Source: Fidelibacterota bacterium
Lineage (GTDB): Bacteria > Fidelibacterota > Fidelibacteria > Fidelibacterales > Fidelibacteraceae
DNA length: 37,162 nucleotides
Assembly (NCBI GenBank): GCA_021734505.1
Contig: JAIPIT010000011.1
Span: 1-37,162 of the forward strand
Reading direction: 5' to 3'
The notes beneath the pieces are model-generated. The model had not been told where the DNA came from. It worked only from the letters and a program-made list of their open reading frames with translations, and ran no database searches. A program made the position numbers and the translations under genes. Shown piece by piece: positions 11,801 through 36,645 of the stretch (positions are counted from its first letter, which is position 1; each line of letters begins with the position of its first letter).

Positions 11801-11843
11801 AGTTTTAGGGGTGATTGGGTTTTGTTAAGATTTAATTAAGATC

Positions 11844-11984
11844 GACTCAATGATAACAATTAGGTTTGAGTCAAACTGAAAAGTTATCATTGAGTCAATC
11901 ATAACAATTGGGTTTGAGTCAAACTGAAAAGTTATCATTGAGTCAATCATAACAATTGAATACGACTTGAAAATTTGAGTCAAA
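11844..11984. promoter_or_regulatory. 48-bp tandem array with three TTTGAGTCAAA dyads, probable operator region
   Basis: ATAACAATT recurs at 11853, 11901 and 11949, a period of exactly 48 bp. The dyad GTTTGAGTCAAAC occurs at 11864-11876 and 11912-11924, and its core TTTGAGTCAAA again at 11974-11984. GACTCAATGATAAC (11844-11857) and GTTATCATTGAGTC (11883-11896) form a perfect inverted repeat. The array ends about 17 bp before the -33 element of the polyferredoxin promoter, where an activator would bind. The TTGA-N-TCAA shape loosely recalls CRP/FNR-family half sites, but the spacing differs from the classical FNR box. The regulator is unknown. Confidence 0.6.
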
Positions 11985-18252: not shown

Positions 18253-18325
18253 GGCTCTGTAGCTCAGTCGGTAGAGCAGGGGACTGAAAATCCCTGTGTC
18301 GCTGGTTCGATTCCGGCCGGAGCCA
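18253..18325 (+). tRNA. tRNA-Phe(GAA)
   Basis: The acceptor stem GGCTCTG/CGGAGCC contains one G-U pair. The D arm contains AGCTCAGTCGGTAGAGC, the anticodon stem-loop is GGGGACTGAAAATCCCT with anticodon GAA, and the T arm has GGTTCGATTCC. The discriminator is A and no CCA is encoded. It is the only intact copy. Its 44-bp 3' part (18283-18326) is repeated downstream three times almost perfectly, which marks it as the integration target for the islands that follow. Confidence 0.97.
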
Positions 18326-18328
18326 CTC

Positions 18329-18655: not shown

Positions 18656-20107
18656 ATGGGAAACCACAAAAAACTTCAGCTTGTAATTAAGTTCGTTTAT
18701 TCATTCGTTTTTTTTATAGGTGCATATTCAACTGCCAATGCTCAGCAATTGCTTTGGGAACGTATTTTTGATAATGGAGAAGAAAATATTTCAAATAGTA
18801 TTTCGACAGATAGTGATGATAATATTATTATTGCGGGTTTTAGCGGTTATCCAAATGGTCTTATTGTAAAATACAATTCAGAAGGTGATACTTTGTGGAC
18901 TTGCCTAAATGATGTGCCAATATCAGCTGTGGCTTGCGATAGTGAAAAGAATATTATTGTGTTTGGCACCATGTATATAGAAGATTCAATGAGAGTTTGC
19001 ATTCTAAAATATGATCCTGAAGGGAATTTGCTTTGGCGACAACAAACAAAAGGTATTAATATTTTTAATGGGCATAGTAGTAGCACCGGTTGTCTGGCAA
19101 TAGATTCAAAGAATAATATTGTGATTGCCGGAATATATTTAAGTGATGAATATGACTATCTTACCCTTAAATTTAATTCTGATGGGGATTTGATTTGGTA
19201 TCGCACTTATCAAGATGCGGAAAACTACTGCGGTGCCCCAGACGGGGTCGCTATAGATAAATCAGATAATATTATAATAACCGGTAGATCTATATTCAAT
19301 AGAGTATGGAATTGGAGAACTCTTAAATATGATCAAAACGGTGATCTACTTTGGGCTGTAGAACAATATCGAACAAGTTGCAATGATTATGCTTATGGTG
19401 TTACAAGTGATCAAGAAGACAATATTATTGTAGTTGGATATGTTGATTCTTTAAATACCAAGTGGTGGCCTTTTATTATAAAATACACACCTGATGGAGA
19501 TACACTTTGGACAAAAAAATTTCAACTATATCCGGACAGCTATGACTTCTCATTTTATGATGTTGTAACGGATAGCTTAGATAATATTATTATCTGCGGA
19601 ATATATAGGCCAACTTCTTCTTGGGGAGAATATTTTGTTTGCAAATTAGATCAAAATGGCAATTTATCATGGACATTTAATGAAATGGTAGATACCAATC
19701 TAATTCATTACGTTCAAGATATGGCCATCGATGACAATGGAGATATATTTGTAACAGGGGCGGTTGAACTTAATACCTGTGATTGTTATACAATAAAAAT
19801 AAGGGATATCGTTACAGACATTGGTGACAATAAACAAATTCCTCAAAAATTTAGCTTATATCCGAATATCCCTAATCCCTTCAATGCAATGACAACATTA
19901 AAATATCAATTGATAGATAAAAATTTTGTTGATCTAACTATATACGATTTGCTTGGCAGAAAGATAATAACACTCGTTTCACAAATGCAATCAGCTGGGG
20001 TTTATACATTTAGATGGAATGCATTTGATATTCCCAGTGGTATATATATTGCGTGTTTAAAGGCCGGAAATCGCTTTTCTTCTCAAAAAATTGTTTTATT
20101 GAAATAA
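18656..20107 (+). CDS. Seven-bladed (SBBP-like) beta-propeller protein with T9SS sorting domain, 483 aa
   Basis: After a signal peptide (cleavage near NAQQ, residue 29) there are seven repeats of D-xx-(N/D)IxxxG followed by KYn-xGdtLW: NIIIAGFSG, NIIVFGTM, NIVIAGIY, NIIITGRS, NIIVVGYV, NIIICGIY and DIFVTGAV. That number fits one closed seven-bladed propeller. The C-terminal ~80 residues are a T9SS type A sorting domain (YPNIPNPFNAMTTLKY, IYDLLGRKI, IPSGIYIACL, QKIVLLK). It is surface-targeted with unknown ligand. It is the only cargo gene of the first att-flanked segment (18326-21783) apart from an IS3 element downstream. Confidence 0.85.
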   Translation: MGNHKKLQLVIKFVYSFVFFIGAYSTANAQQLLWERIFDNGEENISNSISTDSDDNIIIAGFSGYPNGLIVKYNSEGDTLWTCLNDVPISAVACDSEKNIIVFGTMYIEDSMRVCILKYDPEGNLLWRQQTKGINIFNGHSSSTGCLAIDSKNNIVIAGIYLSDEYDYLTLKFNSDGDLIWYRTYQDAENYCGAPDGVAIDKSDNIIITGRSIFNRVWNWRTLKYDQNGDLLWAVEQYRTSCNDYAYGVTSDQEDNIIVVGYVDSLNTKWWPFIIKYTPDGDTLWTKKFQLYPDSYDFSFYDVVTDSLDNIIICGIYRPTSSWGEYFVCKLDQNGNLSWTFNEMVDTNLIHYVQDMAIDDNGDIFVTGAVELNTCDCYTIKIRDIVTDIGDNKQIPQKFSLYPNIPNPFNAMTTLKYQLIDKNFVDLTIYDLLGRKIITLVSQMQSAGVYTFRWNAFDIPSGIYIACLKAGNRFSSQKIVLLK

Positions 20108-20209: not shown

Positions 20210-21217
20210 TCAGTTTACCAAGTTTAATATCTGAGCATTGTTTTGAGGGCTCAGATTTTGTTTTCTACGCAATTTTATTGTTTCGATCTTGATCCTTTCG
20301 CGCCTGCTAAGCACTTCATGATGACGGCCGTAAAATACATCGGCCGGTGTAACGTTATTAATGGATTCATGGTACCGTTCATTGTTGTAATGATCCACAA
20401 ACTGTTTTAGTTCATTCTCCAGTTCCCAAGGGAAGTAATAAGTATCCAATTTCACGACATTTTTCATGGTCCGGTGATAGCGCTCTATCTTACCCTGAGT
20501 CATAGGATGGTATGGCGCACCACGGGTATGATCCATCTGCTTCTGGTCCAAATATTTTTTCAGATCTTTAGATAAATAAGACGGCCCGTTATCCGATAGC
20601 AACCTGGGTTTATGTTTGACCTTAACCTTATCTACACCGGTTTTCGCGATCGCCAGATCCAGAGTGTCTTTGACGTCTTCGGCCGTCATGCTACTTGTCA
20701 GCTTCCAACTGATGATATAGCGGGAGTAATCATCTAGCACTGAAGATAGATAATACCAGCCCCAGCCTACGATTCTAAAGTAGGTGAAGTCAGTCTGCCA
20801 CAGCTCGTTGACTCGCTTTGTAGGGTTCTTAAACTTATCTCCTGCGGACATTAATATGAAGTCCGGAGACGTGATCAGATCATAGGATTTAAGTATTCTG
20901 TATACTGAGGATTCAGAGATAAAGCACTCGTATTTATCTGTAATATGACAGGCCAGTTCACGTGGAGATTTATCCGGTTCTTCCAACGCGATATCAACCA
21001 CTTGTTCTTTTACGAAGTCTGGGATCCTGTTCCAGAAGCGCTTTGAGTTTGCAGGCCTTGTTGCCAGTCCGTCATAACCGTCTTCAAGATACCGCTGATA
21101 CCAGTTATAGAAGGTACTGCGATTGATCCCCAGTTCCATGAGTGTTCTTTTTGCCGATATTTCAGAGTTTTCTACCAGTTTGATTATCTCCATTTTTTCC
21201 GGTTGGGAGTATCTCAT
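20210..21217 (-). CDS. IS3-family transposase OrfB (DDE integrase), 335 aa
   Basis: An N-terminal helix-turn-helix (RTLMELGINRSTFYNWYQRY) is followed by the rve integrase core. The catalytic triad is D143 (WQTDFTYF), D209 (LLSDNGPSY) and E245 (QGKIERYHRTMK); the 35-residue spacing between the last two is the DD(35)E signature of IS3. The frame is open upstream of the ATG into orfA, as expected for OrfAB made by -1 frameshifting. It looks intact. Confidence 0.93.
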   Translation of the reverse strand: MRYSQPEKMEIIKLVENSEISAKRTLMELGINRSTFYNWYQRYLEDGYDGLATRPANSKRFWNRIPDFVKEQVVDIALEEPDKSPRELACHITDKYECFISESSVYRILKSYDLITSPDFILMSAGDKFKNPTKRVNELWQTDFTYFRIVGWGWYYLSSVLDDYSRYIISWKLTSSMTAEDVKDTLDLAIAKTGVDKVKVKHKPRLLSDNGPSYLSKDLKKYLDQKQMDHTRGAPYHPMTQGKIERYHRTMKNVVKLDTYYFPWELENELKQFVDHYNNERYHESINNVTPADVFYGRHHEVLSRRERIKIETIKLRRKQNLSPQNNAQILNLVN

Positions 21218-21231
21218 ATATTTATCGATCT

Positions 21232-21579
21232 TTATTCCGCGCCATTCAAACTTTTTTTTAATCCCCGGTTCTTCAACATCAGTTCTGCCACCAATTCTTT
21301 AAGCTGAGTATTCTCCTGGCGCATTTCATTTACTTCCACACTATTTGCTTCACGGATGGTATCACCTTGAAGGCGTTTCTTACCGGCTTCTAAAAAGTCT
21401 TTACTCCACTTATAATATTGATTGGGGTGAATGCTTTCACGGCGGCATACTGCTGCTATACTGTCTTCGCCTCTTAAACACTCTAAGACGATCCGTATTT
21501 TGTCTTCGGGAGAGAATTTTCTGCGGGTTGCTCCGTTAAGGGGGTGTGCATAATTTTGTGTAAACGGTCTTTCAATCAA
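21232..21579 (-). CDS. IS3-family transposase OrfA, 115 aa, with A8 frameshift site
   Basis: A transposase_8 helix-turn-helix (RRKFSPEDKIRIVLECLRGEDSIAAVCRRE) is followed by a leucine-zipper coiled coil (MRQENTQLKELVAELMLKN). It starts at TTG (21579) after GAGGAAC. A run of eight A (minus strand; 21252-21259) just before the stop is a typical -1 slippery site. Slippage would join OrfA to OrfB, whose frame is -1 and open across the gap. Confidence 0.88.
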   Translation of the reverse strand: MIERPFTQNYAHPLNGATRRKFSPEDKIRIVLECLRGEDSIAAVCRRESIHPNQYYKWSKDFLEAGKKRLQGDTIREANSVEVNEMRQENTQLKELVAELMLKNRGLKKSLNGAE

Positions 21580-21678
21580 AGTTCCTCATACGCTCTCTAA
21601 GCTTAGTATAGCAGACAGTGTTTTGCCTAAAACCCGCATCATTACTACACAAAACACTTAAAACGCTCCTTCTCAATT

Positions 21679-21783
21679 CACCGGTCACTTTTTGGTCACC
21701 CAAGCTCATAACTTATTGATTACCAGTATAGGACAGAGTACTGAAAATCCCTGTGTCGCTGGTTCGATTCCGGCCGGAGCCAC
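21679..21783 (+). repeat. att-like junction 1: 11-bp direct repeats, 39-nt spacer, 44-bp tRNA-Phe 3' fragment
   Basis: GGTCACTTTTTGGTCACC (two GGTCAC 11 bp apart, 21683-21700) is followed after 39 nt by a 44-bp sequence (21740-21783) identical to the 3' part of tRNA-Phe, from the anticodon loop through the acceptor stem. The tRNA 5' half and promoter are absent, so it is not a gene. I read it as the right attachment site of the first island. Confidence 0.85.
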
Positions 21784-21792
21784 ACTTAACTG

Positions 21793-21816
21793 CCCTGTAA
21801 ACAAACATTTACAGGG
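21793..21816 (+). terminator. Terminator-like hairpin after tRNA-Phe fragment 1
   Basis: CCCTGTAAA and TTTACAGGG pair around a 6-nt loop and are followed by TTTGTTGTTTT. It sits 10 bp behind the fragment, in the same relative position as the real tRNA-Phe terminator. Confidence 0.6.
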
Positions 21817-22242
21817 TTTGTTGTTTTGGCACTGTATTTTGTGAAATATAACGGGTTAATAATGTAATGTTTTTAGTTCTGATGGGGTGGTCATTTTATG
21901 GTCAGTTTTTGGGCAACGCAAAATGATGAAACTCGCAAGAGAAGGCACCTTATATAGCGAAAATCAGCCCTCTCTCCTCGATGCTAGTACCAGGGTATTT
22001 TTCCACTGTACCCCGGGTTTAAAGGTACCCATGATACTTGGGAGTTGAGAATTATTTTATCTATAGCAAGAAGCCACCTGGGAGGTGGCTCTAGTGACTG
22101 TCTGAATAATGGGAAAGGGCATAATGTTTGTGATTATTTAAAATTAGGAACAATATTTAAATATTTACAGTATGTGTTTTGTTATTATGCATTTAATTAG
22201 TATTATACAAAGTATTATAGATAATGTATTCAAGGAGGTTTC
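21817..22242. other. Gene-free left part of the second island
   Basis: Three direct repeats with 11-bp period (GGTCATTTTAT, GGTCAGTTTTT, GGGCAACGC) start at 21889, 21900 and 21911, about 105 bp after the tRNA fragment. A CCCCGGGTTTAAAGGTACC block (22012-22056) matches the one at 18502. An AGCCACCT/AGGTGGCT hairpin lies at 22072-22090. An AT-rich upstream region with SD AAGGAGG precedes the next gene. No gene is seen. Confidence 0.6.
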
Positions 22243-23247
22243 ATGAAAATAAAATTAACAATTTCTCCAATACTACATATATTTGTCACAATATTTTTAG
22301 TTTCTTGCTTTAATAGTACAGTTGACGAATATCCTGATCATTATTTGGATGATTGGCAGCTATATTCTTTGGAGAATAAAGATATCGGAGTTTTTAGTCT
22401 GCACCCAATAAATACAGATATTGTTTATGCAGGAGGAACAGAATTATTGATAACAATTAATGATGGACAAACTTGGGATACGCTTTTTACGGAAAATGAG
22501 AGTAGGGATATTAAGATTTCCACTGATAATATAATATATTATGCAACATATGGATTATTTAAAAGCACTGATGGTGGAGTTATCTGGAATGCCATTAATC
22601 CCACTTTTCCAGAAGAAGCTATTTTTACTTGTTTTGATATTGATCCGGATAATAACGATATAATTTATGTCGGTTGTGGTGGCCCAACGGGTGGAGCATT
22701 ATATAAAAGCATTAATGGTGGGATAGATTGGTCTCAGATAAATACTGAAGAAATGTTTGGCAGTATTAAGAAACTTGTCGTTAATCCAAATAATACAGAT
22801 ATAGTATATGCAAGTGTAGCCGGTGAGGGACTTTTATTTAAGACAAAAAATAAGGGACGAACTTGGATCCAGATGGATATTGGAATTGAGGATCTAGCTT
22901 ATGACTTTAATGATATATTTTGCGATCCCTTAGATAATTCCACTACATATATTGTCAGTAGATCTATATTTAAAACTGATAATAACGGTAGAAGTTGGGA
23001 AGATATTAGTGAAGGAATATTAGAAAATTCCACTATAAATAATATTACCGGGACAAATAATGGTCGATTATTCGTGAGTACCAGAACAAGTTTATACGAA
23101 TTTATTCATGAGTCTGAATCATGGACAAAAATTAGTAATGATTCTTTAAATCTAATTATTAATGATATTAAGTGTTCTGAAAATACTAACAAGTTATTCA
23201 TAGGCACTGATAAAGGAATATATACAATCAATTTATTGCACGAATAA
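22243..23247 (+). CDS. BNR/sortilin-like repeat lipoprotein, 334 aa
   Basis: A lipoprotein signal peptide ends in LVSC (Cys 22). At least five BNR-type blades follow (TINDGQTWDT, STDGGVIWNA, SINGGIDWSQ, TKNKGRTWIQ, TDNNGRSWED), interleaved with DP-N-DIVYAG strands, as in sortilin/Ycf48-type propellers. It lacks a T9SS tail, so lipid anchoring replaces the sorting domain. It has strong SD AAGGAGG and very AT-rich codon use. It lies 12 bp before the subtilisin/beta-helix gene and is probably co-transcribed with it. Confidence 0.78.
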   Translation: MKIKLTISPILHIFVTIFLVSCFNSTVDEYPDHYLDDWQLYSLENKDIGVFSLHPINTDIVYAGGTELLITINDGQTWDTLFTENESRDIKISTDNIIYYATYGLFKSTDGGVIWNAINPTFPEEAIFTCFDIDPDNNDIIYVGCGGPTGGALYKSINGGIDWSQINTEEMFGSIKKLVVNPNNTDIVYASVAGEGLLFKTKNKGRTWIQMDIGIEDLAYDFNDIFCDPLDNSTTYIVSRSIFKTDNNGRSWEDISEGILENSTINNITGTNNGRLFVSTRTSLYEFIHESESWTKISNDSLNLIINDIKCSENTNKLFIGTDKGIYTINLLHE

Positions 23248-23259
23248 GGAGTAAAGGAA

Positions 23260-26200
23260 GTGATTCGCAGAACATACAGTTTAGTAATAATAATATTAAT
23301 TCTATTGAATATTCAATTAAATGCCTCTGGAATAAATGAGAAAAAACTGAATATTAAAACCGCATTTTGGAAAGGAAAGTATGTTAAATATATACCACAC
23401 CAAATTGCAGTTAAAATAAAACCTGATGCAAGTAAAAAGGAAATTAAAGAGTTATTTAGAGAAAAAAATATAATAGAAATTGTTCCTGTTGATAAATGGG
23501 GCTGGTTCTTGGCTGGAATAAACAAAGAAATTGATGAAATTTCTTTTATTAATGAATTACTAAGTAATCCAATAGTTATTTGTGCCGAATTAAATAATTT
23601 TGTTACAGCAGGATTTGAACCTGATGATCCATATTTTGATGGAACTAGTCCAGCAACTTATGCACATCAGTGGGCATTAAAAAATACTGGTCAAACCCCT
23701 CCTTCTGGTACTATTGGTGCTGATATAGATATAATAAATGCTTGGGATATAACTAAAGGGGATACAAGTGTAATAATTGCCGTTCTTGATTCAGGTATCC
23801 CTATGGAAAACGGCGTTTTATCACATCCAGATTTAAATAATTCTCAAAAAATATTATTAGGTGATGATTTTACCCCACTCATATATAGTAATGTAGAAGA
23901 TGAAACTGTAACTGATCATTGGGGACATGGAACACATGTTACGGGTATTATTGCCGCAGAAGCAAATAATGATACTGGTATAGCTGGTATTGCACATGGT
24001 TGTAAAATAATAGTTATGCAAGTATTTGAAGATGAAGGGGGTTTTGGAAGTTCTTATCTTTTTAAACTTGGTGTAGATTCTGTCGTTAATTATAAAATTA
24101 ATCATCCAAATACAAATTGTATTATAAATTTCAGTGGTAACTCCGGTAATCAAACCTATGTTACCGACGCACTTGATAATGCTGAAGAATATGAAGTCCT
24201 AATTGTTTCAATTGCTGGGAATGGCTTTTCAGATCCTGTAGAATATCCAGCTAAATTTTCAGAAGATTACTCAAATATAATTGCTGTTTCTTCAGTAGAT
24301 GCCGATGGTGTGTTCTCAGCTTTTTCTAACAAAGGAAGTCAGATCTGTGTAGCTGCACCTGGGGGATATGGGGGGGTATATGTAAATAACATTATGTATT
24401 ATAATACAACATCTAATTATGGGAAAAATATTTTTTCAACAACACCCAATTATAATTTTAATATGCAAAGTTCAACTGATGTAACGACATCCTATGGTTA
24501 TTTAGATGGAACTTCTATGGCCGCTCCAGTCGTTTCAGCAATAGCAGGGCTATTATTATCAATTAACTCGGATTTAACACCTTCACAAGTTAGAAATATT
24601 ATCGAGACAACTGCTGATGATGATGATGCGGGAGACGGTTTTGATAATTACTATGGACATGGAAAAATTAATGCCTATAAAGCTTTGAAATATACTCTAG
24701 AAAACTACGGTGGTACTTTAACTCAAAATATAACTGTTTCATCTGGAAGAACATTAGATATTAAAACGGGCACCACAGTAAATCTTAATTCATATACATT
24801 TACTTCTTCAGGTGGAACAATAATAGTTGAAAATGGTGCTACCATTAATCCATATATATGCCTTAAAAATGGTTCAGCAATTAAAGGATTATATTCAACG
24901 CTATCATCAGCATTGAGTGCAGCTAGTAACGGAGAAACAATTGAATTTGGTGCAACAACCACTCTTACTGGTGATGTTACTATTCCCTCAGGAGTGACAC
25001 TTACTATTAATAGTGATGCTTCAATAACAATGCGTGGAAATAAAATCACTACAACTTCTGGCACGATCAATGTTAATTACGATGCAGATATAAATCCATT
25101 TATAGTACACAGAGATCATTCTGACGATATTATTGGTTTATATCCAAATATAGATGATGCGTTTTCAGCCGTTTCAGCTGCTGCTGACCAAACAGTCGAA
25201 ATCAATAGTGCTGTAAGTGTTTCGAGTGATGATATAATAGTTCCTTTTGAAACTACTTTGGAAATAATGGACAAAGCAAATCTTTCAATTGATTATCCAT
25301 ATACAATTACAACGAATGGAGGTAGTATTGTATTAAGTGGAAGCCCTACCATTAATCCTGATATCAGAGCATTAAACTCAGGAACAATACAGGGTCTATA
25401 TCACTCAATATCAGATGCAATGTCCCAAGGAACTACTGTACAGGCTCGTGGTGGAACTCATACATTTGCTGATCATTATACCATAGCATCCGGGAAATTA
25501 CTTGGACTTTATGATGAAGCAGAAATAAAATTCCCCTCAGGTAAATATCTTTATGTAAATGGTGGACTGTATTGTGATGAAGCGACATTCACAAGCACGT
25601 CAGGGACATGGGGAGGCATTAAATACCAAAGTGGTTTTGGAACATTAAATGAGGCAACGATTACTAATGCCACTTATGGAGTCTACTGCAATTCCGCATC
25701 ACCAACCATTGAGTATAGTGATATTTCCAATTGCACTTATGGTGTTTATAACAGTGGCGGCTCGCCGGACATTTATAACAGCAGTATCAATGGCGGTACA
25801 TATGGCGTATATAATTATAATGGAAGTTATTATAATACAATTGCCGGTAATATGATATCCTCGACATATGGTATCTATAGCTACGCTTCATTATCACTTA
25901 TAAGGAATAATGAAATAACAAGCAGTACGATTGGTTTATACTGTGACAATAATTCATCCCCCGAATTATTGAGTGGCGGTAATTATTTTCATGGAAATTT
26001 TGTAATATTCGGTGTTTTTGCTGATAACAATTCAAGTCCCAGCATGGGAGTAGACTATTGCAGTGTCGGTGGGAATCACAGTTTTGTATATAATAACCTT
26101 GATATTGCCCTCGTTAGCGCCGGAACAAACTGTCACATATGGGCCCAAAACAACTGGTGGGGAACATCATCGCCCAATGCAGGTATGTTCGGCGGTAATG

Positions 26201-27204
26201 TGGAGTGGGATCCCTGGCTTACAAGTATGCCTCAATACACTATGCAATTATCCCCTGAGAACGAACTATTTGAAGAAAGTTTCAAATTATCTTCGGTTGC
26301 TCCCGATGATGGTGGTGAAGATCTGATCACTTATTACGACGACACTTGGTCGTTGGAACAAAAGATCAGGTTCTTGCGATATTTGGTAAATAATGATGAA
26401 GTACTTGGTGTTCCTGCTTTATGTAAAGATATCATTGAAACATATCCTTATTCACAAGAGGCCTTTACAGCACTTAATATCATTTACCAGATTACCAAAA
26501 AAAGAGATATTAAAAAAGATATAGACAAAGGATCCTTAAAAACCTATTTAATGGATTTTGAAGAGAAAAAGGGAAATAAAATGCTCAACGGTTCGGCCCT
26601 GCTGATGCTTGCAGGATTGGAAAAGAAAGAAGGGCTTTCACGGATCGATGTTGTTTATTCGGAAAATAAAAACAATTACCTGGGAGAATATGCATTGTAT
26701 CAAAAGTACATGTATTACTTCCATGAAGAGGAGGATTCACTGCAAGCTAAAAAAGTACTTGCTCTGATGGATGAGGTTTATCCTGATAGCAGGGTGACCT
26801 ATGAAGCCCATCTTCTATTAGGTGATGAGGTAATAACTCCTGGAGAATTCTATAGCCAACTTCAAAAGAATAATGAAGCAGAACAAATCGAATTTACATC
26901 TACGGATATCGATGAGATTCTTCCTGAAGAGTATGCTCTTAGCACTGCATATCCCAACCCATTCAACCCGAGTACGACCATTGAATTCGCATTACCGGTT
27001 CAATCAGATGTTGAGTGTAGTATCTATAATGTATCAGGTAACTTGATTAAGGAATACAGCTTAAATCAGAATGCTGGAATACATTCGATCGTTTGGGATG
27101 GCTCAAATGTATCAAGTGGTATTTATCTAATCAAATTCACAGCTGAATCTCAAGATGGTGCTGAAACCTTCGTGGATTATCAGAAGGTGACTTTACTTAA
27201 ATGA
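23260..27204 (+). CDS. Subtilisin-like (S8) protease fused to beta-helix, helical and T9SS sorting domains, 1314 aa
   Basis: It starts at GTG after AAGGAG, with a signal peptide to about residue 23. A propeptide-like region (45-115) is followed by an intact S8 domain (about 130-475): D177 (VLDSGI), H223 (GHGTHVTG), oxyanion N321 (IAGNGF) and S419 (DGTSMAAP). Three repeats of INP-x-GLY...A (about 525-735) lead to a right-handed beta-helix (about 776-985; YGVY, NNWWG). A helical domain (about 1020-1220) and a T9SS tail (YPNPFNPSTTIEF, VSSGIYLIKF, KVTLLK) complete it. Residues 776-1314 are closely paralogous to residues 315-855 of the protein at 31443. The N-terminal part is much more AT-rich than the C-terminal part, suggesting a chimera. 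The stop overlaps the next start (ATGA). Confidence 0.88.
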   Translation: MIRRTYSLVIIILILLNIQLNASGINEKKLNIKTAFWKGKYVKYIPHQIAVKIKPDASKKEIKELFREKNIIEIVPVDKWGWFLAGINKEIDEISFINELLSNPIVICAELNNFVTAGFEPDDPYFDGTSPATYAHQWALKNTGQTPPSGTIGADIDIINAWDITKGDTSVIIAVLDSGIPMENGVLSHPDLNNSQKILLGDDFTPLIYSNVEDETVTDHWGHGTHVTGIIAAEANNDTGIAGIAHGCKIIVMQVFEDEGGFGSSYLFKLGVDSVVNYKINHPNTNCIINFSGNSGNQTYVTDALDNAEEYEVLIVSIAGNGFSDPVEYPAKFSEDYSNIIAVSSVDADGVFSAFSNKGSQICVAAPGGYGGVYVNNIMYYNTTSNYGKNIFSTTPNYNFNMQSSTDVTTSYGYLDGTSMAAPVVSAIAGLLLSINSDLTPSQVRNIIETTADDDDAGDGFDNYYGHGKINAYKALKYTLENYGGTLTQNITVSSGRTLDIKTGTTVNLNSYTFTSSGGTIIVENGATINPYICLKNGSAIKGLYSTLSSALSAASNGETIEFGATTTLTGDVTIPSGVTLTINSDASITMRGNKITTTSGTINVNYDADINPFIVHRDHSDDIIGLYPNIDDAFSAVSAAADQTVEINSAVSVSSDDIIVPFETTLEIMDKANLSIDYPYTITTNGGSIVLSGSPTINPDIRALNSGTIQGLYHSISDAMSQGTTVQARGGTHTFADHYTIASGKLLGLYDEAEIKFPSGKYLYVNGGLYCDEATFTSTSGTWGGIKYQSGFGTLNEATITNATYGVYCNSASPTIEYSDISNCTYGVYNSGGSPDIYNSSINGGTYGVYNYNGSYYNTIAGNMISSTYGIYSYASLSLIRNNEITSSTIGLYCDNNSSPELLSGGNYFHGNFVIFGVFADNNSSPSMGVDYCSVGGNHSFVYNNLDIALVSAGTNCHIWAQNNWWGTSSPNAGMFGGNVEWDPWLTSMPQYTMQLSPENELFEESFKLSSVAPDDGGEDLITYYDDTWSLEQKIRFLRYLVNNDEVLGVPALCKDIIETYPYSQEAFTALNIIYQITKKRDIKKDIDKGSLKTYLMDFEEKKGNKMLNGSALLMLAGLEKKEGLSRIDVVYSENKNNYLGEYALYQKYMYYFHEEEDSLQAKKVLALMDEVYPDSRVTYEAHLLLGDEVITPGEFYSQLQKNNEAEQIEFTSTDIDEILPEEYALSTAYPNPFNPSTTIEFALPVQSDVECSIYNVSGNLIKEYSLNQNAGIHSIVWDGSNVSSGIYLIKFTAESQDGAETFVDYQKVTLLK

Positions 27205-27896
27205 TGAAATATGCCATATATGAAAGCATGTGTAGGGGACGCTCGCGAGCGTCCCTTACATTACCGAAGATGTTTTTTGTTATTGCCATAAGCGTTCTTC
27301 CCTTTCTTCTCCATGCCGAACATCCAGATTCAACCATTATGAAGCTGGAAAATCAGAAATCGAATATTGCATACGCCTCAAAGATATTTGATATCAATTT
27401 TGATTATCTCAAATCCATCATCTATGTTGAACGAACAAATAATTACAACTGGCAGGATGAGTATTTTGATGATTACCTTGCCAAGAAAGGACAGAACAGC
27501 TCCATCGGCTTTTGTCAGGTTAAGATGAAAACGGCATATTGGATAGAGTGTCTGTTGGTAGATAGTACATCCGAGTTTTATCCCGGGAAGAAATACGAAG
27601 GTATTCTGCCAGTAAGTCAGTCGCCTCAAGAGATCATTGATAAACTCGAAGATGATCGAACAAATCTTCTCTATGCATCTGCTTACATGAGAATCATTCA
27701 AAGCTACTGGGAAAGCAAAGGTTTCTCGATTGATGATAGAGTAGATATTATCGCCACAATCTTTTCTTATGGGATATTTAATAGATCTACAGGTGAGCCT
27801 TTAAAACCTAATGCCAATCCAAAGCCAAATTGGTTTGGGTCAGAAGCTCTAAAAGCATACAGGATGTTGCTCTTGCAACAACCCAACAAGAATTAA
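27201..27896 (+). CDS. Secreted lytic-transglycosylase-like protein, 231 aa (copy 1)
   Basis: The mature part has the order of motifs of the SLT/lysozyme-like fold: Glu77 in IIYVERTNN as likely catalytic acid, SSIGFCQVKMKTA (100-112) at the place of the GLMQ motif, DDRTNLLYASAYMR for the Ni..G..YL helix, and ATIFSYGIF for the AxYNxG segment. It would cleave peptidoglycan in the periplasm; the match is by pattern only. The signal peptide (hydrophobic core about 24-37) is preceded by CRGRSRASLT, encoded by a 30-bp palindrome. The start overlaps the previous stop (ATGA). The copy at 34007 is about 80% identical in the mature part. Confidence 0.72.
   Translation: MMKYAIYESMCRGRSRASLTLPKMFFVIAISVLPFLLHAEHPDSTIMKLENQKSNIAYASKIFDINFDYLKSIIYVERTNNYNWQDEYFDDYLAKKGQNSSIGFCQVKMKTAYWIECLLVDSTSEFYPGKKYEGILPVSQSPQEIIDKLEDDRTNLLYASAYMRIIQSYWESKGFSIDDRVDIIATIFSYGIFNRSTGEPLKPNANPKPNWFGSEALKAYRMLLLQQPNKN
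27231..27260. repeat. 30-bp short palindromic repeat inside a signal-peptide coding region
   Basis: The arms TGTAGGGGACGCTCG and CGAGCGTCCCTTACA contain the perfect 20-bp palindrome GGGACGCTCGCGAGCGTCCC. It belongs to the GTAGGGG-type family seen at 18396, 18464 and 35010. Here it is in frame and encodes the charged n-region of the signal peptide. Confidence 0.85.
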
Positions 27897-27952
27897 GGTA
27901 ATCTGGCCAAAACACTTGTAAAATAGCACTTTGCCACACCCTGAAAAACTTC

Positions 27953-28131
27953 GGGCACTTTTTGGGCACCTTTTTCTCAAAAACCCACATCATTACTACC
28001 TAAAACCCCTAAAAACACAAACTTCTCCGCGGTAGCCACATCTTGGTATACACAAACGGTATAACCCGCATGGATAAAGGGTCTGTACCAGACTCTTAAT
28101 CCGTTGGTTCTAGGTTCGATGGCGTACGATG
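27953..28131 (+). repeat. att-like junction with GGGCAC direct repeats and a degenerate tRNA-Lys(CTT)-like 3' fragment
   Basis: GGGCACTTTTTGGGCACC (27953-27970) has the same 11-bp spacing as the GGTCAC pairs at the tRNA-Phe junctions. Downstream, CAGACTCTTAATCCG then GGTTCTAGGTTCGA (28089-28119) resembles the anticodon stem (CTT) and T arm of tRNA-Lys, but the acceptor end is scrambled. It looks like the right end of an element that once targeted tRNA-Lys. Confidence 0.5.
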
Positions 28132-28154
28132 ACTCCCCTTTCTTGGGGAGTTTT
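28132..28154 (+). terminator. Terminator-like hairpin after the tRNA-Lys-like fragment
   Basis: ACTCCCC and GGGGAGT pair around TTTCTT, followed by TTTTG. Confidence 0.7.
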
Positions 28155-28259
28155 GTTATTGTGTGGAAAAGTGCAAAGAAGCTACAAATAATCATTCTTG
28201 ATAAATAAAAAGATTCAACATATATTAACTATCATTAATAATATTTGATAGGTGCTGCG

Positions 28260-28925
28260 ATGAAAAAATATTTTGTCATACTTTTTTGCATATTGATGTT
28301 CTCTTGTAGTGATCTCTTAGATATTATGAATCAACAGCACACAGCCCCCGAATTAATTACTAAACCTGTTACAGAAATATCTCTTTTTGGAGCAAAGGTT
28401 TCTACCCAAGTGACTGATACTGATGCAGAACTGATTGATGAGGCCGGTTTTTATCTGGGTTTTGAATCTGATACCAGTAGCTCTAATGATCTTAAGATAC
28501 TTTATGAAAAATCTGATAATGAAAGATATATCCCTTGGGATTTTTCATGTCAAGTAAGTGATTTAGATTCAAATACGACATATAGAGTAAAAGCATATGC
28601 TTTTTCAATTATGACTGGTTGTGGATATGGGAACTATGTTGCTTTTACTACTATGAGCAATGTCATCAAAGGGAAATGGTCATTTTACGATACTTATAGC
28701 CGAGGATATGAAGTATTTACTTTTAATAAAGACCTAAGCTTTATACTGGAAGAATTAGACAGCAATCTGCAAATTACGTTTACATCACCGGGAACATATG
28801 ATTTAAGCCCTGATAGCATATTCTTAAATCATGATAGAAGAACTGGTGAAAGATCACATTCGTATACACTAACTGATACCATTCTAAACATCGACAATAT
28901 TCCCTATATCAAACAAAACGAATAA
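28260..28925 (+). CDS. Fn3-like lipoprotein, 221 aa
   Basis: ATG 28260 gives a clean lipoprotein signal (MKKYFVILFCILMFSC); the upstream TTG at 28245 is not needed. Residues about 35-135 have the pattern of Bacteroidota fibronectin type III-like lipoproteins (EAGFYLGFES, SDLDSNTTYRVKAYAFS, GYGNYVAFTTM). A C-terminal lipocalin-like beta region follows (GKWSFYDTYSRGYEVFTFNKDLSF). It is the only gene between the tRNA-Lys-like fragment and the second tRNA-Phe fragment. Function is unknown. Confidence 0.78.
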   Translation: MKKYFVILFCILMFSCSDLLDIMNQQHTAPELITKPVTEISLFGAKVSTQVTDTDAELIDEAGFYLGFESDTSSSNDLKILYEKSDNERYIPWDFSCQVSDLDSNTTYRVKAYAFSIMTGCGYGNYVAFTTMSNVIKGKWSFYDTYSRGYEVFTFNKDLSFILEELDSNLQITFTSPGTYDLSPDSIFLNHDRRTGERSHSYTLTDTILNIDNIPYIKQNE

Positions 28926-29039
28926 CTGCAAATATTGTACGTACAAGTAATGAAGACTGTGATAATCAAATAATGTCATACATTTTATAAATATTGTCCT
29001 AAATCCCTGTAAAATCACACTATACTACACCTAAGAATT

Positions 29040-29144
29040 CACCGGTCACTTTTTGGTCACCTTGCCTTGTAACTTATTGAATATCAGCAGTGAACAGAGT
29101 ACTGAAAATCCCTGTGTCGCTGGTTCGATTCCGGCCGGAGCCAC
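29040..29144 (+). repeat. att-like junction 2: 11-bp direct repeats, 39-nt spacer, 44-bp tRNA-Phe 3' fragment
   Basis: GGTCACTTTTTGGTCACC (29044-29061), a 39-nt spacer closely similar to junctions 1 and 3, then the 44-bp tRNA-Phe 3' part (29101-29144), identical to 18283-18326. There is no tRNA 5' half. Confidence 0.87.
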
Positions 29145-29151
29145 CACCTAA

Positions 29152-29185
29152 AGCCCTGTAATAACATAGACTTACAGGGCTTTTT
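29152..29185 (+). terminator. Terminator after tRNA-Phe fragment 2
   Basis: AGCCCTGTAA and TTACAGGGCT pair around a 10-nt loop, followed by TTTTATTT. The stem is related to that after fragment 1 (CCCTGTAA). Confidence 0.75.
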
Positions 29186-29230
29186 ATTTCTACATCATTT
29201 ATATAGTAATATAACGAGAAACGGCGTTTT

Positions 29231-29263
29231 TGGACATTCATGGGCGCCATTTGGGCGCCGCAA
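29231..29263. repeat. Three 11-bp-period repeats on the left side of the third island
   Basis: TGGACATTCAT, GGGCGCCATTT and GGGCGCCGCAA start at 29231, 29242 and 29253. They lie about 90-110 bp after the tRNA fragment, like the triple at 21889. Confidence 0.55.
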
Positions 29264-31442: not shown

Positions 31443-34010
31443 ATGTTAAAAAAGAAAAGAATAATACAGATTATTTTAATTATTTTGTTATATCAAAATT
31501 TGGGAGCACAATATATCCCTATAGATTTATTTACACCTCGTGGAACATTAATTGGTAATACTTATTATTGCAATACAGATTATAATTCAGTCACAATAGC
31601 AATTCTAAATGAAATGTATCAAAATGACTATCCTCTTGCAGAAATAATTGGAAATTCATCTAGAAAATATAATTGTCATGGATATGCTTGGCATATGATT
31701 GAAGGTGGGGCTATAGATAACCCTATTTGGATAGGTTTAACTTCTGCAGGAAATACATATAAGTATTGGGAAGACGAAAGCTATAGCGTAGTAGATGTTC
31801 AATATGCTACTATTGTTGATTATTCGATTGATCACTCTGCAATAACTACCGATACAATAGAAATACTTATTTCTAAATGGGGCGATGGTCCGTTAATGAG
31901 ACATGGTACAACTGGTTATGGTACAATTTCTAAATATTTACGAAAAAACCCTGCAACACCATCAGATTTTATTACTGTTTTAGAAGCTATTAACGATGCT
32001 GTTCCTAATCAAATTGTACATGTTGATAGCGGTGTGCCTGTACTTTCATGTAATATATCAATATCAGAAAACATTACATTAAAAATTCATTCAGGGGCAA
32101 TTTTAGAACTTGATACCTGTTCAATAATTTTTCAGGAAGGTTCATTATTCATTGCTACAAATGCAGAAATAAGCCCCTATTTCTGTTTAAAAGAAGGAAT
32201 GAATGTAAAAGGACTGTATCCCTCCTTTTTGACTGCATTAAATGTAGCTACATCTGGTCAAACAATTGAAATTGGTGATAATGTTTCACTGACAACAAGT
32301 ACAACCATCCCTTCGGGCATTACCCTTAAATTTGCTACCGGTAAATCATTAAATACTTCAGTATCATTAAACGCGACGAATGTTACGTTTACAAGTCTGT
32401 CGGGAACCTGGGGTGGTATTAAATATAATAGTGGCAGTTCAGGAACATTGAATAATTGTACTATAAGCAATTCAACTTACGGTGTCTATTGTAATTCCTC
32501 ATCACCTACCATTGAAAACAGTAATATTTCAAATTGTACCTATGGAGTGTACAATAATAACGGCTCGTCGGATATTTATGATAATAATATCGTGAGCGGC
32601 ACCTATGGCATATATAATTATAATGGAAGCGGCTATAATACAATCTCCGGAAATACCATATCTTCATCATACGGTATCTATAACTATGCTTCATCATCGA
32701 TCATCCGGGATAATGAAATCACCAGCAGTACGGTTGGTTTATATTGTGATAATTACTCTTCACCCGAGCTTTTGACAGGAGGGAATTATTTTCATGGCAA
32801 TTATGTGATCTTCGGTGTTTATGCCGATAATAATTCAAATCCGAGCATGGGAGTTGCATGGTGCATGCTAGACGGTGAACACAGTTTCGTATACAATGGT
32901 TTTGACATTGCCCTGGTCAATGCCGGAACGAACTGTTCCATATGGGCCGAGAACAACTGGTGGGGAACCTCGTCGCCATACGCGGGGATGTTCAGCGGAT
33001 CGGTTGATTGGAATCCGTATTTACAGAACATGCCGACATACAGCATGCAGCCGAATCCGGAAAATGATATTTATGACCAGACATTTAACAGGGTTGCAGT
33101 TCAGACTGATGACCAGACAGATAACGATCTGATCAACTATTATGATGAAGCCTGGTCCTTAGATCAAAAGATCAAGTTCCTGCGGTATCTGGTTCATTAT
33201 AACGAAGCGACGGGTGTACCCGCCTTATGTAAAGAAATCATTGAAACCTATCCGTATTCCCCGGAAGCATTCACGGCGTTGGATATCATTTATCAGGTTG
33301 TAATAAATGAAAACGCCGCAAAGGATATCGATAAAGAATCCCTCAAGATCTATTTGAAAACGTTTGAAGAGAAAAAGGGAAATAAAATGCTCAACGGTTC
33401 GGCTTTGCTGATGCTGGCCGGACTGGAAAAGAAAGAAGGACTTTCAAGGATCGATGCCGTTTATACCGCGAATAAGGATAATTATCTGGGGGAATATGCA
33501 TTATATCAGAAGTTCATGTATTATGTTCATGATGAGGAAGATATGGAGACAGCCAAATCGGTACTTGATTTGATGGATGAGGTTTATCCTGAGAGCAGGG
33601 TGAGTTATGAAGCCCATCTTCTTATCGGTGATGAGGTGATATCCCCCGAAGAATTCTACAGCCGTCTTCAAAAGAAAACCGAAGCAGAACAAATGGAACT
33701 TGTATCCACCGATATCGATGAGATCATCCCCGCGGAGTACGCGCTTGATCCGGCAGTACCAAACCCCTTTAATCCGAGTACGGCTCTTGAATTTGATCTG
33801 CCGGTCCAATCGAAAGTTCAATGTGGTATATATGATGTGAGAGGTAACCTGGTCAAGGAATACAGCTATGAGCAGAATGCCGGGACCTACTCGATCGTGT
33901 GGGATGGCTCAAATGTATCAAGTGGTATTTACTTGATCCGGTTTGTTGCTGAGGCGTCTGATGGAACTGAAACGTTTGTTGATTATCAGAGGGTGACGTT
34001 ACTTAAATGA
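31443..34010 (+). CDS. Papain/CHAP-like hydrolase domain fused to beta-helix, helical and T9SS sorting domains, 855 aa
   Basis: After a signal peptide (to about 22, LGAQ), residues about 35-170 carry YNCHGYAWH (Cys78), VDYSIDHSAI (His131) and ISKWGDGPLMRHG. This is the Cys-His layout of NlpC/P60- or CHAP-like amidases and peptidases, assigned by pattern only. A NAEISPYFCLKEG...GLYP segment, a right-handed beta-helix (about 315-525; repeated YGVY/YGIY, NNWWG), a helical domain and a T9SS tail (VPNPFNPSTALEF, VSSGIYLIRF, RVTLLK) follow. Residues 315-855 are closely paralogous to 776-1314 of the S8 protein, whose N-terminal enzyme is unrelated. GC rises from very low in the 5' part (7 of 60 bases in 31441-31500) to 27 of 60 in 33181-33240. 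The stop overlaps the next start (ATGA). Confidence 0.82.
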   Translation: MLKKKRIIQIILIILLYQNLGAQYIPIDLFTPRGTLIGNTYYCNTDYNSVTIAILNEMYQNDYPLAEIIGNSSRKYNCHGYAWHMIEGGAIDNPIWIGLTSAGNTYKYWEDESYSVVDVQYATIVDYSIDHSAITTDTIEILISKWGDGPLMRHGTTGYGTISKYLRKNPATPSDFITVLEAINDAVPNQIVHVDSGVPVLSCNISISENITLKIHSGAILELDTCSIIFQEGSLFIATNAEISPYFCLKEGMNVKGLYPSFLTALNVATSGQTIEIGDNVSLTTSTTIPSGITLKFATGKSLNTSVSLNATNVTFTSLSGTWGGIKYNSGSSGTLNNCTISNSTYGVYCNSSSPTIENSNISNCTYGVYNNNGSSDIYDNNIVSGTYGIYNYNGSGYNTISGNTISSSYGIYNYASSSIIRDNEITSSTVGLYCDNYSSPELLTGGNYFHGNYVIFGVYADNNSNPSMGVAWCMLDGEHSFVYNGFDIALVNAGTNCSIWAENNWWGTSSPYAGMFSGSVDWNPYLQNMPTYSMQPNPENDIYDQTFNRVAVQTDDQTDNDLINYYDEAWSLDQKIKFLRYLVHYNEATGVPALCKEIIETYPYSPEAFTALDIIYQVVINENAAKDIDKESLKIYLKTFEEKKGNKMLNGSALLMLAGLEKKEGLSRIDAVYTANKDNYLGEYALYQKFMYYVHDEEDMETAKSVLDLMDEVYPESRVSYEAHLLIGDEVISPEEFYSRLQKKTEAEQMELVSTDIDEIIPAEYALDPAVPNPFNPSTALEFDLPVQSKVQCGIYDVRGNLVKEYSYEQNAGTYSIVWDGSNVSSGIYLIRFVAEASDGTETFVDYQRVTLLK

Positions 34011-34699
34011 TAGACTTATTAAATGATAATAAATGTAAGGGACGGTCTAGACCGTCTCCTGCATTTTTAGGTCGGTTTATTTTATTGTTCCTGTCTATAA
34101 CAGGCTTTCTTCTTGCCGAAGATCCGGATACGACACTGCAAAAGTTAAAAGAGCAGTCAGTAAATATTGAATATGCCTCTAAAACATTTGATATTGATCC
34201 GATGAAGCTTAAAACTATTACTTACGTAGAACGTACAAATAACTACGACTGGCGTGATGAATACTTTGATGATTATCTGGCTAAGAAGGGGCAAAATAGT
34301 TCTATTGGTTTCTGCCAAGTGAAGATGAAAACGGCTTATTGGATTGAATGTCAATTAGCTGATAGTACATCTGAGTTTTATTCCGGGAAGATGTACGAGG
34401 ATATCCTACAGGTTAGCCAGTCTCCACAAGCGATCATTGACAAGCTTGAAGATGATAGGACAAATCTTCTTTATGCATCAGCTTACATGAGGATCATTCA
34501 AAGCTATTGGCAGAGCAGGGGATATTCGATTGATGATCGCGTAGATATTATTGCCACGATATTTTCTTATGGAATATTCAGCAGAGCAACTGGTGAGCCT
34601 TTAAAACCTAATGCCGACCCAAAGCCGAATTGGTTTGGAGAGCAGGCATTAGATATCTATAAGATGTTCACTTTAAAGCATCCAATAAACCACGAATAA
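34007..34699 (+). CDS. Secreted lytic-transglycosylase-like protein, 230 aa (copy 2)
   Basis: Paralogue of 27201-27896, with the same motifs: Glu75 in ITYVERTNN, SSIGFCQVKMKTA, DDRTNLLYASAYMR and ATIFSYGIF. The block from DEYFDDYLAKK through AYWIEC is identical in both. The signal peptide (hydrophobic core about 24-36) is again preceded by CKGRSRPSPA, encoded by a diverged 30-bp palindrome. ATGA overlap with the upstream gene keeps the pair translationally coupled. It probably acts on peptidoglycan, perhaps to open the wall for the partner or to attack a neighbour; the target is not visible. Confidence 0.72.
   Translation: MIDLLNDNKCKGRSRPSPAFLGRFILLFLSITGFLLAEDPDTTLQKLKEQSVNIEYASKTFDIDPMKLKTITYVERTNNYDWRDEYFDDYLAKKGQNSSIGFCQVKMKTAYWIECQLADSTSEFYSGKMYEDILQVSQSPQAIIDKLEDDRTNLLYASAYMRIIQSYWQSRGYSIDDRVDIIATIFSYGIFSRATGEPLKPNADPKPNWFGEQALDIYKMFTLKHPINHE
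34034..34063. repeat. 30-bp palindrome inside the second signal-peptide coding region
   Basis: The arms TGTAAGGGACGGTCT and AGACCGTCTCCTGCA have a perfect 16-bp core GACGGTCTAGACCGTC. It lies at the same codons as the palindrome at 27231, but the stem sequence differs with pairing kept. Confidence 0.82.
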
Positions 34700-34763: not shown

Positions 34764-34868
34764 CACCGGTCAGTTTTTGGTCACCTTGCCTTGTAACTTA
34801 TTGATTATCAGCAGTGAACAGAGTACTGAAAATCCCTGTGTCGCTGGTTCAATTCCGGCCGGAGCCAC
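34764..34868 (+). repeat. att-like junction 3: 11-bp direct repeats, 39-nt spacer, 44-bp tRNA-Phe 3' fragment
   Basis: GGTCAGTTTTTGGTCACC (34768-34785), a 39-nt spacer nearly identical to that of junction 2, then the tRNA-Phe fragment 34825-34868 with a single change (GGTTCAATTCC in the T loop). Confidence 0.87.
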
Positions 34869-36460: not shown

Positions 36461-36645
36461 CACCGGTCAGTATTTGGTCCCCACTACGTCCGTCAGCTAA
36501 CGGACTTCGTAGGGCAGGCACCTTTTTGCCTTTAACCTTTATGTATACTGAGTGTTTTAGGTACTGAAAATCCCTGTAGAGTTTATCCGGCGTAGTCCCG
36601 ATATGCATCGGGACGTAGTCGGACTGGTTCCCCCGGAGCAACGGT
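36461..36645 (+). repeat. att-like junction 4, degenerate and interrupted by two palindromes
   Basis: CACCGGTCAGTATTTGG is interrupted by a ~40-bp insert containing ACGTCCGT...ACGGACTTCGT; GGCACC then resumes, and ACTGAAAATCCCTGT (36563-36577) follows 40 nt later. The tRNA sequence is then broken by a second insert with TCCCGAT/ATCGGGA (36588-36612), before GGTTC and CCCCGGAGC end it. It is the decayed distal end of the array. Confidence 0.65.

What the first reader, a model, noticed from the sequence alone, without database searches (positions are those of the whole stretch)
21679..29263. 11-bp-period direct repeats on both sides of the tRNA-Phe cores, at a fixed 39-nt distance on the left
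GGTCAC-N5-GGTCAC ends exactly 39 nt before the core at 21740, 29101 and 34825. On the other side, about 90-130 bp after the core, 11-bp-period triples occur (GGTCA/GGTCA/GGGCA at 21889, 21900, 21911; TGGACA/GGGCGCC/GGGCGCC at 29231, 29242, 29253). One helical turn of spacing and two-sided placement are what arm-type integrase binding sites look like. In the tRNA-Lys-like junction both half-sites change together to GGGCAC, as if tracking a different recombinase.
Basis: partly seen in the sequence, partly recalled or inferred. Interest (0 to 1): 0.72.

Follow-up and report, generated by a model that had tools for sequence, protein, structure and literature searches.

The report
Integrase docking sites on tRNA islands
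The short repeats beside the broken tRNA copies are very probably docking sites for the enzyme that inserts gene islands into tRNA genes, and the same layout recurs in many related marine bacteria (Marinimicrobia), often around small islands that lack the enzyme's own gene.

Summary
The window is a whole contig of a Marinimicrobia draft genome. Behind an intact tRNA-Phe lie three copies of its 3' half. Each is preceded by GGTCA(C/G)-N5-GGTCAC ending 40 nt (not 39) before the core. Two of four left ends carry roughly 11-bp-period repeats.

Relatives supply independent evidence. The same right-end module occurs in 38 of 245 Marinimicrobia genomes. In 42 distinct junctions the gap is 40 nt in 37 and 39-41 nt in all, with Phe, Met, Lys and Arg cores. 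Half-sites change together. In an intact integrase-bearing relative the right pair lies at the end far from the integrase, so it is not an integrase 3' end. Arm motifs track the integrase's N-terminal domain beyond what the rest of the protein predicts.

Arm-type integrase sites is the best reading (about 0.8); binding is unproven and an excisionase remains possible. The window's islands carry no integrase; the draft genome shows only XerC and XerD. The 'Lys' GGGCAC pair is 121 nt from its core and missing from two sister copies, so that sub-claim fails. tRNA cassette islands are a known kind; I found no earlier report of this phylum-wide attachment module.

The parts
18253..18326 (+). intact tRNA-Phe (GAA), the insertion target; no arm-like repeats follow it
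18656..20107 (+). island 1 cargo: secreted protein with DUF5122 propeller and Por_Secre_tail
20210..21579 (-). island 1: two transposase genes (rve/HTH type and HTH_Tnp_1), next to the right end
21683..21699 (+). right-end arm pair GGTCACTTTTTGGTCAC (island 1)
   Evidence: conserved in relatives
21740..21783 (+). core: 3' half of tRNA-Phe, junction island 1/2
21889..21915 (+). left-end arm repeats GGTCA-N6-GGTCA-N6-GGGCA (island 2)
   Evidence: homologous left end at G000:C59:2166(-)
22243..27896 (+). island 2 cargo: Sortilin/YCF48-like, subtilase with Por_Secre_tail, 231-aa protein without Pfam match; no recombinase
27953..27969 (+). GGGCAC-N5-GGGCAC pair, 121 nt from the Lys-like core; role unclear
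28091..28135 (+). tRNA-Lys(CTT)-like 3' remnant inside island 2, a different end module
29044..29060 (+). right-end arm pair GGTCACTTTTTGGTCAC (island 2)
29069..29087 (+). conserved box between arms and core (consensus GTAAxT..CTGATAATCAG), possible accessory-protein site
   Evidence: role inferred
29101..29144 (+). core: 3' half of tRNA-Phe, junction island 2/3
29231..29259 (+). left-end repeats TGGACA / GGGCGCC / GGGCGCC (island 3); similar left end in G007:C115
29280..34699 (.). island 3 cargo: GLUG and NosD-like secreted proteins with Por_Secre_tail and two proteins without Pfam match; no recombinase
34768..34784 (+). right-end arm pair GGTCAGTTTTTGGTCAC (island 3)
34825..34868 (+). last core: 3' half of tRNA-Phe; no arm repeats after it
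36465..36481 (+). decayed right-end pair GGTCAGTATTTGGTCCC, with a core fragment at 36563

Best explanation
The repeats are arm-type attachment-site sequences of tRNA-targeting tyrosine integrases. Each island end carries short direct repeats about one helical turn apart: at the right end a pair 40 nt before the core, at a typical left end two or three GGNCA-like repeats, often followed by a second pair, roughly 80-150 nt after the tRNA 3' end. The integrase N-terminal domain would grip these arms while its catalytic domain cuts the core, which is the anticodon stem-loop of the target tRNA (ACAGRGT-ACTGAAA-ATCCCTGT). The conserved box between arms and core would let an accessory protein bend the DNA. 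The islands in the window hold no integrase gene, so they would have been inserted one after another behind the tRNA by an integrase supplied in trans, such as the one seen behind tRNA-Phe in genus mate G001. Shown: geometry, its conservation and covariation, position opposite the integrase in an intact relative, absence of an integrase in the window. Inferred: binding, bending, action in trans.
For: Fixed gap of 40 nt in 37 of 42 distinct junctions (39-41 nt in all), control none, including five junctions not found through the model. Right-end model in 38 of 245 phylum genomes, 13 genera, with Phe, Met, Lys and Arg cores. Half-site covariation 169/216 against 132.6 by shuffling, 0 of 20,000. 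Arm motif tracks the integrase N-terminal part after the rest is accounted for: partial r 0.33-0.35, p 0.0006-0.003; the converse is not significant. Tyrosine integrases sit directly behind tRNAs with repeats between. G084:C175 complete 13.3-kb element has arm pairs at both ends and the integrase at one. N-terminal part predicted as three strands plus helix and superposes on HPI and Tn916 arm-binding domains at 1.8-2.0 A.
Against: No binding data. Related sequences inflate covariation and distance tests. Left and right pairs of one island do not always match (island 3; L128). Two of four left ends in the window have no repeats. The structural matches have low Z (4-5), shared by unrelated folds. 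The 78% complete assembly cannot prove that no cognate integrase exists in this genome.
Confidence: 0.8

Rival explanations
1. The repeats bind a recombination directionality factor (excisionase) or another winged-helix protein that assembles along DNA with one helical turn per unit, rather than the integrase.
For: Phased direct repeats near att sites are also used by such factors; RdfS of ICEMlSymR7A oligomerises at attL next to integrase arm sites (PMC11963761).
Against: The arm motif tracks the integrase N-terminal domain specifically, and pairs occur at both ends of the element. An excisionase gene was not searched for, and it could co-evolve with the integrase.
Confidence: 0.13
2. The pair is conserved only because the junctions descend from a recent common junction; it has no function of its own.
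For: Inside the window the junctions are copies of a 149-nt repeat.
Against: Across families the surrounding sequence diverges while pair, gap and core persist and the two half-sites change together.
Confidence: 0.04
3. The pair is the 3' end of an integrase reading frame (FTGHFLVT) conserved as protein.
For: The stretch is open in that frame across the repeats.
Against: In 23 junctions no frame through the pair exceeds 140 codons or matches the integrase profile; at 29101 that frame opens three codons upstream. Integrases lie at the other end of the element on the opposite strand.
Confidence: 0.01

Closest known systems
attP sites with arm-type and core-type elements of lambda-like, P4-like and ICE tyrosine integrases (lambda Int, HPI integrase, Tn916 Int, IntS of ICEMlSymR7A)
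   Same: Short direct repeats on both sides of a tRNA-derived core; an N-terminal domain distinct from the catalytic domain; several arm sites per attachment site (five for IntS, PMC11963761).
   Different: Here one right-end geometry (pair, 40-nt gap) is kept over at least six families of one phylum and several tRNA targets, and many copies flank islands with no integrase. Binding is not shown.
Additive flexible genomic islands with tRNA-targeted cassettes (Actinomarinales PMC7771536, Alteromonas PMC4119200, Methylophilaceae PMC10872708)
   Same: [quoted passage not shown] cargo of ordinary metabolic and surface genes.
   Different: The passages read there name no arm-type site; here the ends carry a recognisable attachment module that links them to an integrase family.
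Tycheposons and integrase-less integron arrays (CALINs)
   Same: Cargo islands at tRNA genes; arrays depending on an integrase encoded elsewhere (PMC11389934).
   Different: No integron integrase in this genome and tRNA cores with arm repeats rather than attC; no phage-satellite feature was sought.

Membership tests
Lambda/P4-type tyrosine-integrase attachment site | core with inverted integrase half-sites inside a target gene | tested here: met
   Core is the anticodon stem-loop, ACAGRGT-ACTGAAA-ATCCCTGT, shared by tRNA and junctions; cleavage positions not determined
Lambda/P4-type tyrosine-integrase attachment site | direct-repeat arm sites on both sides of the core at set distances | tested here: met
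   Right pair at 40 nt in 37 of 42 junctions; left repeats at integrase-bearing elements, but only at two of four left ends in the window
Lambda/P4-type tyrosine-integrase attachment site | cognate integrase with an N-terminal arm-binding domain | tested here: inconclusive
   Predicted three strands plus helix resembling HPI and Tn916 arm domains, Z 3.9-5.2; motif co-varies with this part; no cognate integrase found in the window's own genome
Lambda/P4-type tyrosine-integrase attachment site | integrase binds the arms and recombines the site | not testable with these tools
   needs footprinting and a recombination assay
[quoted passage not shown]
   three 3'-half copies delimit three islands
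Additive tRNA cassette island | cassette presence/absence differs between close strains | not tested
   no strain-level genomes compared; genus mates differ in what follows tRNA-Phe
Integron / CALIN | integron integrase (IntI) in the genome | tested here: not met
   the two PF00589 proteins found pass XerD and XerC cut-offs and fall far below integron-integrase cut-offs; assembly 78% complete
Tycheposon | own tyrosine recombinase in the island | tested here: not met
   none in the three window islands; present in some relatives

The most novel reading that the evidence does not exclude
Marinimicrobia use a phylum-wide cassette system: small integrase-less gene cassettes carry a standard attachment module (arm pair, 40-nt spacer, tRNA core) and are collected in tandem behind several tRNA genes by tyrosine integrases acting in trans, comparable in function to integron cassette arrays but built from tRNA sites.
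Probability: 0.4. Interest if true: 0.75.

Novelty: new member of a known kind. Interest (0 to 1): 0.55.

Why it matters
tRNA cassette islands without a recombinase gene have been reported in several aquatic bacteria, and what moves them is unclear. If these repeats are integrase arms, the ends of such cassettes can be recognised by sequence, orphan cassettes can be matched to candidate integrases through the arm motif, and the pairing of N-terminal domain and arm motif can be tested directly. It also gives a way to map mobile cargo in an uncultured marine phylum.

Tried and rejected
Protein-coding reading of the repeats: rejected. Integron: no integron integrase. 'Lys junction tracks another recombinase': the GGGCAC pair is 121 nt away and not shared by two sister Lys-type ends. 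Left/right arm identity within one island: looked at by eye on complete islands; some agree (island 2, G084), some do not (island 3, L128), so inconclusive. Full-length integrase model: catalytic half of low confidence (mean pLDDT 65), so only the N-terminal part is used; Foldseek with that part alone gave no match below E 0.001, and the second look gave low Z values. Literature searches for Marinimicrobia or SAR406 with integrase terms returned two papers each that only mention the words. No empty site from a sister strain was compared.

Full report
What is in the window. The window is a complete contig (C14) of a 1.98-Mb, 78% complete draft genome. Relatives with named records are Candidatus Marinimicrobia / Neomarinimicrobiota. 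An intact tRNA-Phe lies at 18253-18326, downstream of rimM, trmD and rplS. Three further copies of its 3' half follow at 21740, 29101 and 34825, the usual trace of serial site-specific insertion at a tRNA gene. They delimit islands of 3.5, 7.4 and 5.7 kb. The islands carry mostly secreted proteins with Por_Secre_tail sorting domains and a pair of transposase genes, and no tyrosine recombinase.

The observation. About 0.001 such pairs are expected by chance in the window. Because the junctions are copies of a 149-nt repeat, the window alone cannot separate function from shared descent. Left-end repeats follow only two of the four tRNA ends. The GGGCAC pair at 27953 is real but sits 121 nt from the Lys-like core, and two sister copies of that Lys-type end in the same genome lack it.

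Relatives. A DNA search with the junction found matching right ends in other families of the phylum. Twenty-two were aligned: arm pair, conserved inner box GTAAxT..CTGATAATCAG, core. A sequence-only model of this alignment finds right ends in 38 of 245 Marinimicrobia genomes, 13 genera. The cores are not always tRNA-Phe: Met, Lys and Arg cores stand behind the same module.

Fixed geometry. Independently of the model I asked where an anticodon-loop-like core occurs 30-51 nt after a near-identical 11-bp-period pair. Forty-two distinct junctions qualify: 37 at 40 nt, 3 at 39, 2 at 41, none elsewhere; the reversed core gives none. Most of the loci had been chosen with the model or by DNA similarity, which favours the same spacing. 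Five were reached through integrase genes or a Lys-core query (L318, L319, L324 twice, L346), and all five show exactly 40 nt.

Covariation. Over 36 distinct right-end pairs the two half-sites agree in 169 of 216 letters against 132.6 by shuffling, with 0 of 20,000 shuffles reaching it; the third and fourth letters agree in 56 of 72 against 33.9. Left-end pairs at integrases behave alike: TGCACA twice in L120 and L320, TGCGCA twice in the related L321; GGGCAC twice in L130 and L323, TGGCAC twice in L131. Shared ancestry inflates these figures, and the left pairs were recognised by being repeats.

Tyrosine integrases of about 336-412 aa lie directly behind tRNAs on the opposite strand, in most cases with left repeats between tRNA and integrase. 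G084:C175 holds a complete 13.3-kb element at tRNA-Arg cores: integrase and a GGAGAC pair at one end, a GGTGAC pair 40 nt before the core at the other. The right pair is thus far from the integrase 3' end. In 23 junctions no reading frame through the pair exceeds 140 codons or matches the integrase profile, and at 29101 the FTGHFLVT frame opens only three codons upstream. The refutation condition is not met.

Does the integrase read the arms? For 17 integrases with a readable left pair, arm-motif distance was compared with protein distance. The N-terminal part explains motif distance after the rest is accounted for (partial r 0.33, p 0.0006; 14 non-redundant: 0.35, p 0.003), and the rest does not after the N-terminal part is accounted for (0.08 and 0.06, not significant). 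L337 (tRNA-Phe) and L335 (tRNA-Leu) share the GTGAC motif and 69% of the N-terminal part but only 52% of the remainder. These permutation tests do not correct for the tree. The N-terminal part is predicted as three strands and a helix (pLDDT about 86) and superposes on the arm-binding domains of HPI integrase (3rmp, 1.8 A over 51 residues; 3jtz, 2.0 A) and Tn916 integrase (1bb8, 1.9 A), at Z values that unrelated folds also reach.

Non-autonomous islands. In about fifteen islands bounded by cores in the fetched contigs (0.2-24 kb, most 1-7 kb) no integrase of this family was found. Cargo includes LVIVD and laminin-G proteins, radical SAM proteins, acetate kinase and HEAT-repeat proteins. The window's genome and eight of nine genus mates have no integrase of this family at E 1e-40; G001 has one, behind its tRNA-Phe. 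The two tyrosine recombinases of the window's genome pass the XerD and XerC cut-offs. Incomplete assemblies limit every claim of absence.

Mechanism and limits. The best reading is a lambda/P4-like arrangement: arms gripped by the integrase N-domain, core in the anticodon stem-loop, a bend at the inner box, and repeated insertion behind the tRNA with the integrase in trans. The sequence evidence supports the sites; binding, bending and mobility in trans are inferred. An excisionase binding the same phased repeats is not excluded (compare RdfS, PMC11963761).

Known or new. tRNA cassette islands are described for Actinomarinales, Alteromonas and Methylophilaceae (PMC7771536, PMC4119200, PMC10872708), and arm-type sites are classical. 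I found no description of this attachment module in Marinimicrobia in the library searched. I file it as a new member of a known kind whose main value is a readable link between orphan cassettes and their likely recombinase.

Noticed in passing
L270:10001-10290 (G060:C16): A 207-bp mini-element between an intact tRNA-Phe and a second core holds three GGACA repeats, a GGTCAC pair and the core but no gene: left and right ends fused.
   Followed up: partly
L099:1457, L099:4330, L100:8779, L253:1220, L270:10238, window 36563: Short palindromes (such as TCCCGAT..ATCGGGA or TCCGGCAGCTGCCGGA) interrupt tRNA-Phe 3' remnants at the variable loop and T-loop in several genomes.
   Followed up: no
L126:995-1606, L130:5725-6321, L117:18604-19203, L124:4042-4539: A second, catalytic-only tyrosine recombinase of about 165-203 aa occurs on some of the same contigs, several kb from the 340-aa integrase or from a core.
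   Followed up: no
window 21621-21663 and 27980-28135; G000:C98:1153-1290; G000:C65:3473-3598: A separate tRNA-Lys(CTT)-type end module, longer and without the 40-nt pair, is found next to Phe-type ends in this genome.
   Followed up: partly
window 25634-27707 and 32437-34507: Neighbouring islands 2 and 3 share 76-81% identical DNA covering the end of a large secreted protein and a following 230-aa gene without Pfam match.
   Followed up: no
G000:C48:25145-25227 (L062), L114:307, L064:3757: Some right ends lose tRNA identity just after the anticodon stem-loop, either by decay or by insertion at a secondary site.
   Followed up: no
window 11836-11952: A compact array of inverted and direct TTGAGTCAA-containing repeats in an intergenic stretch.
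   Followed up: no
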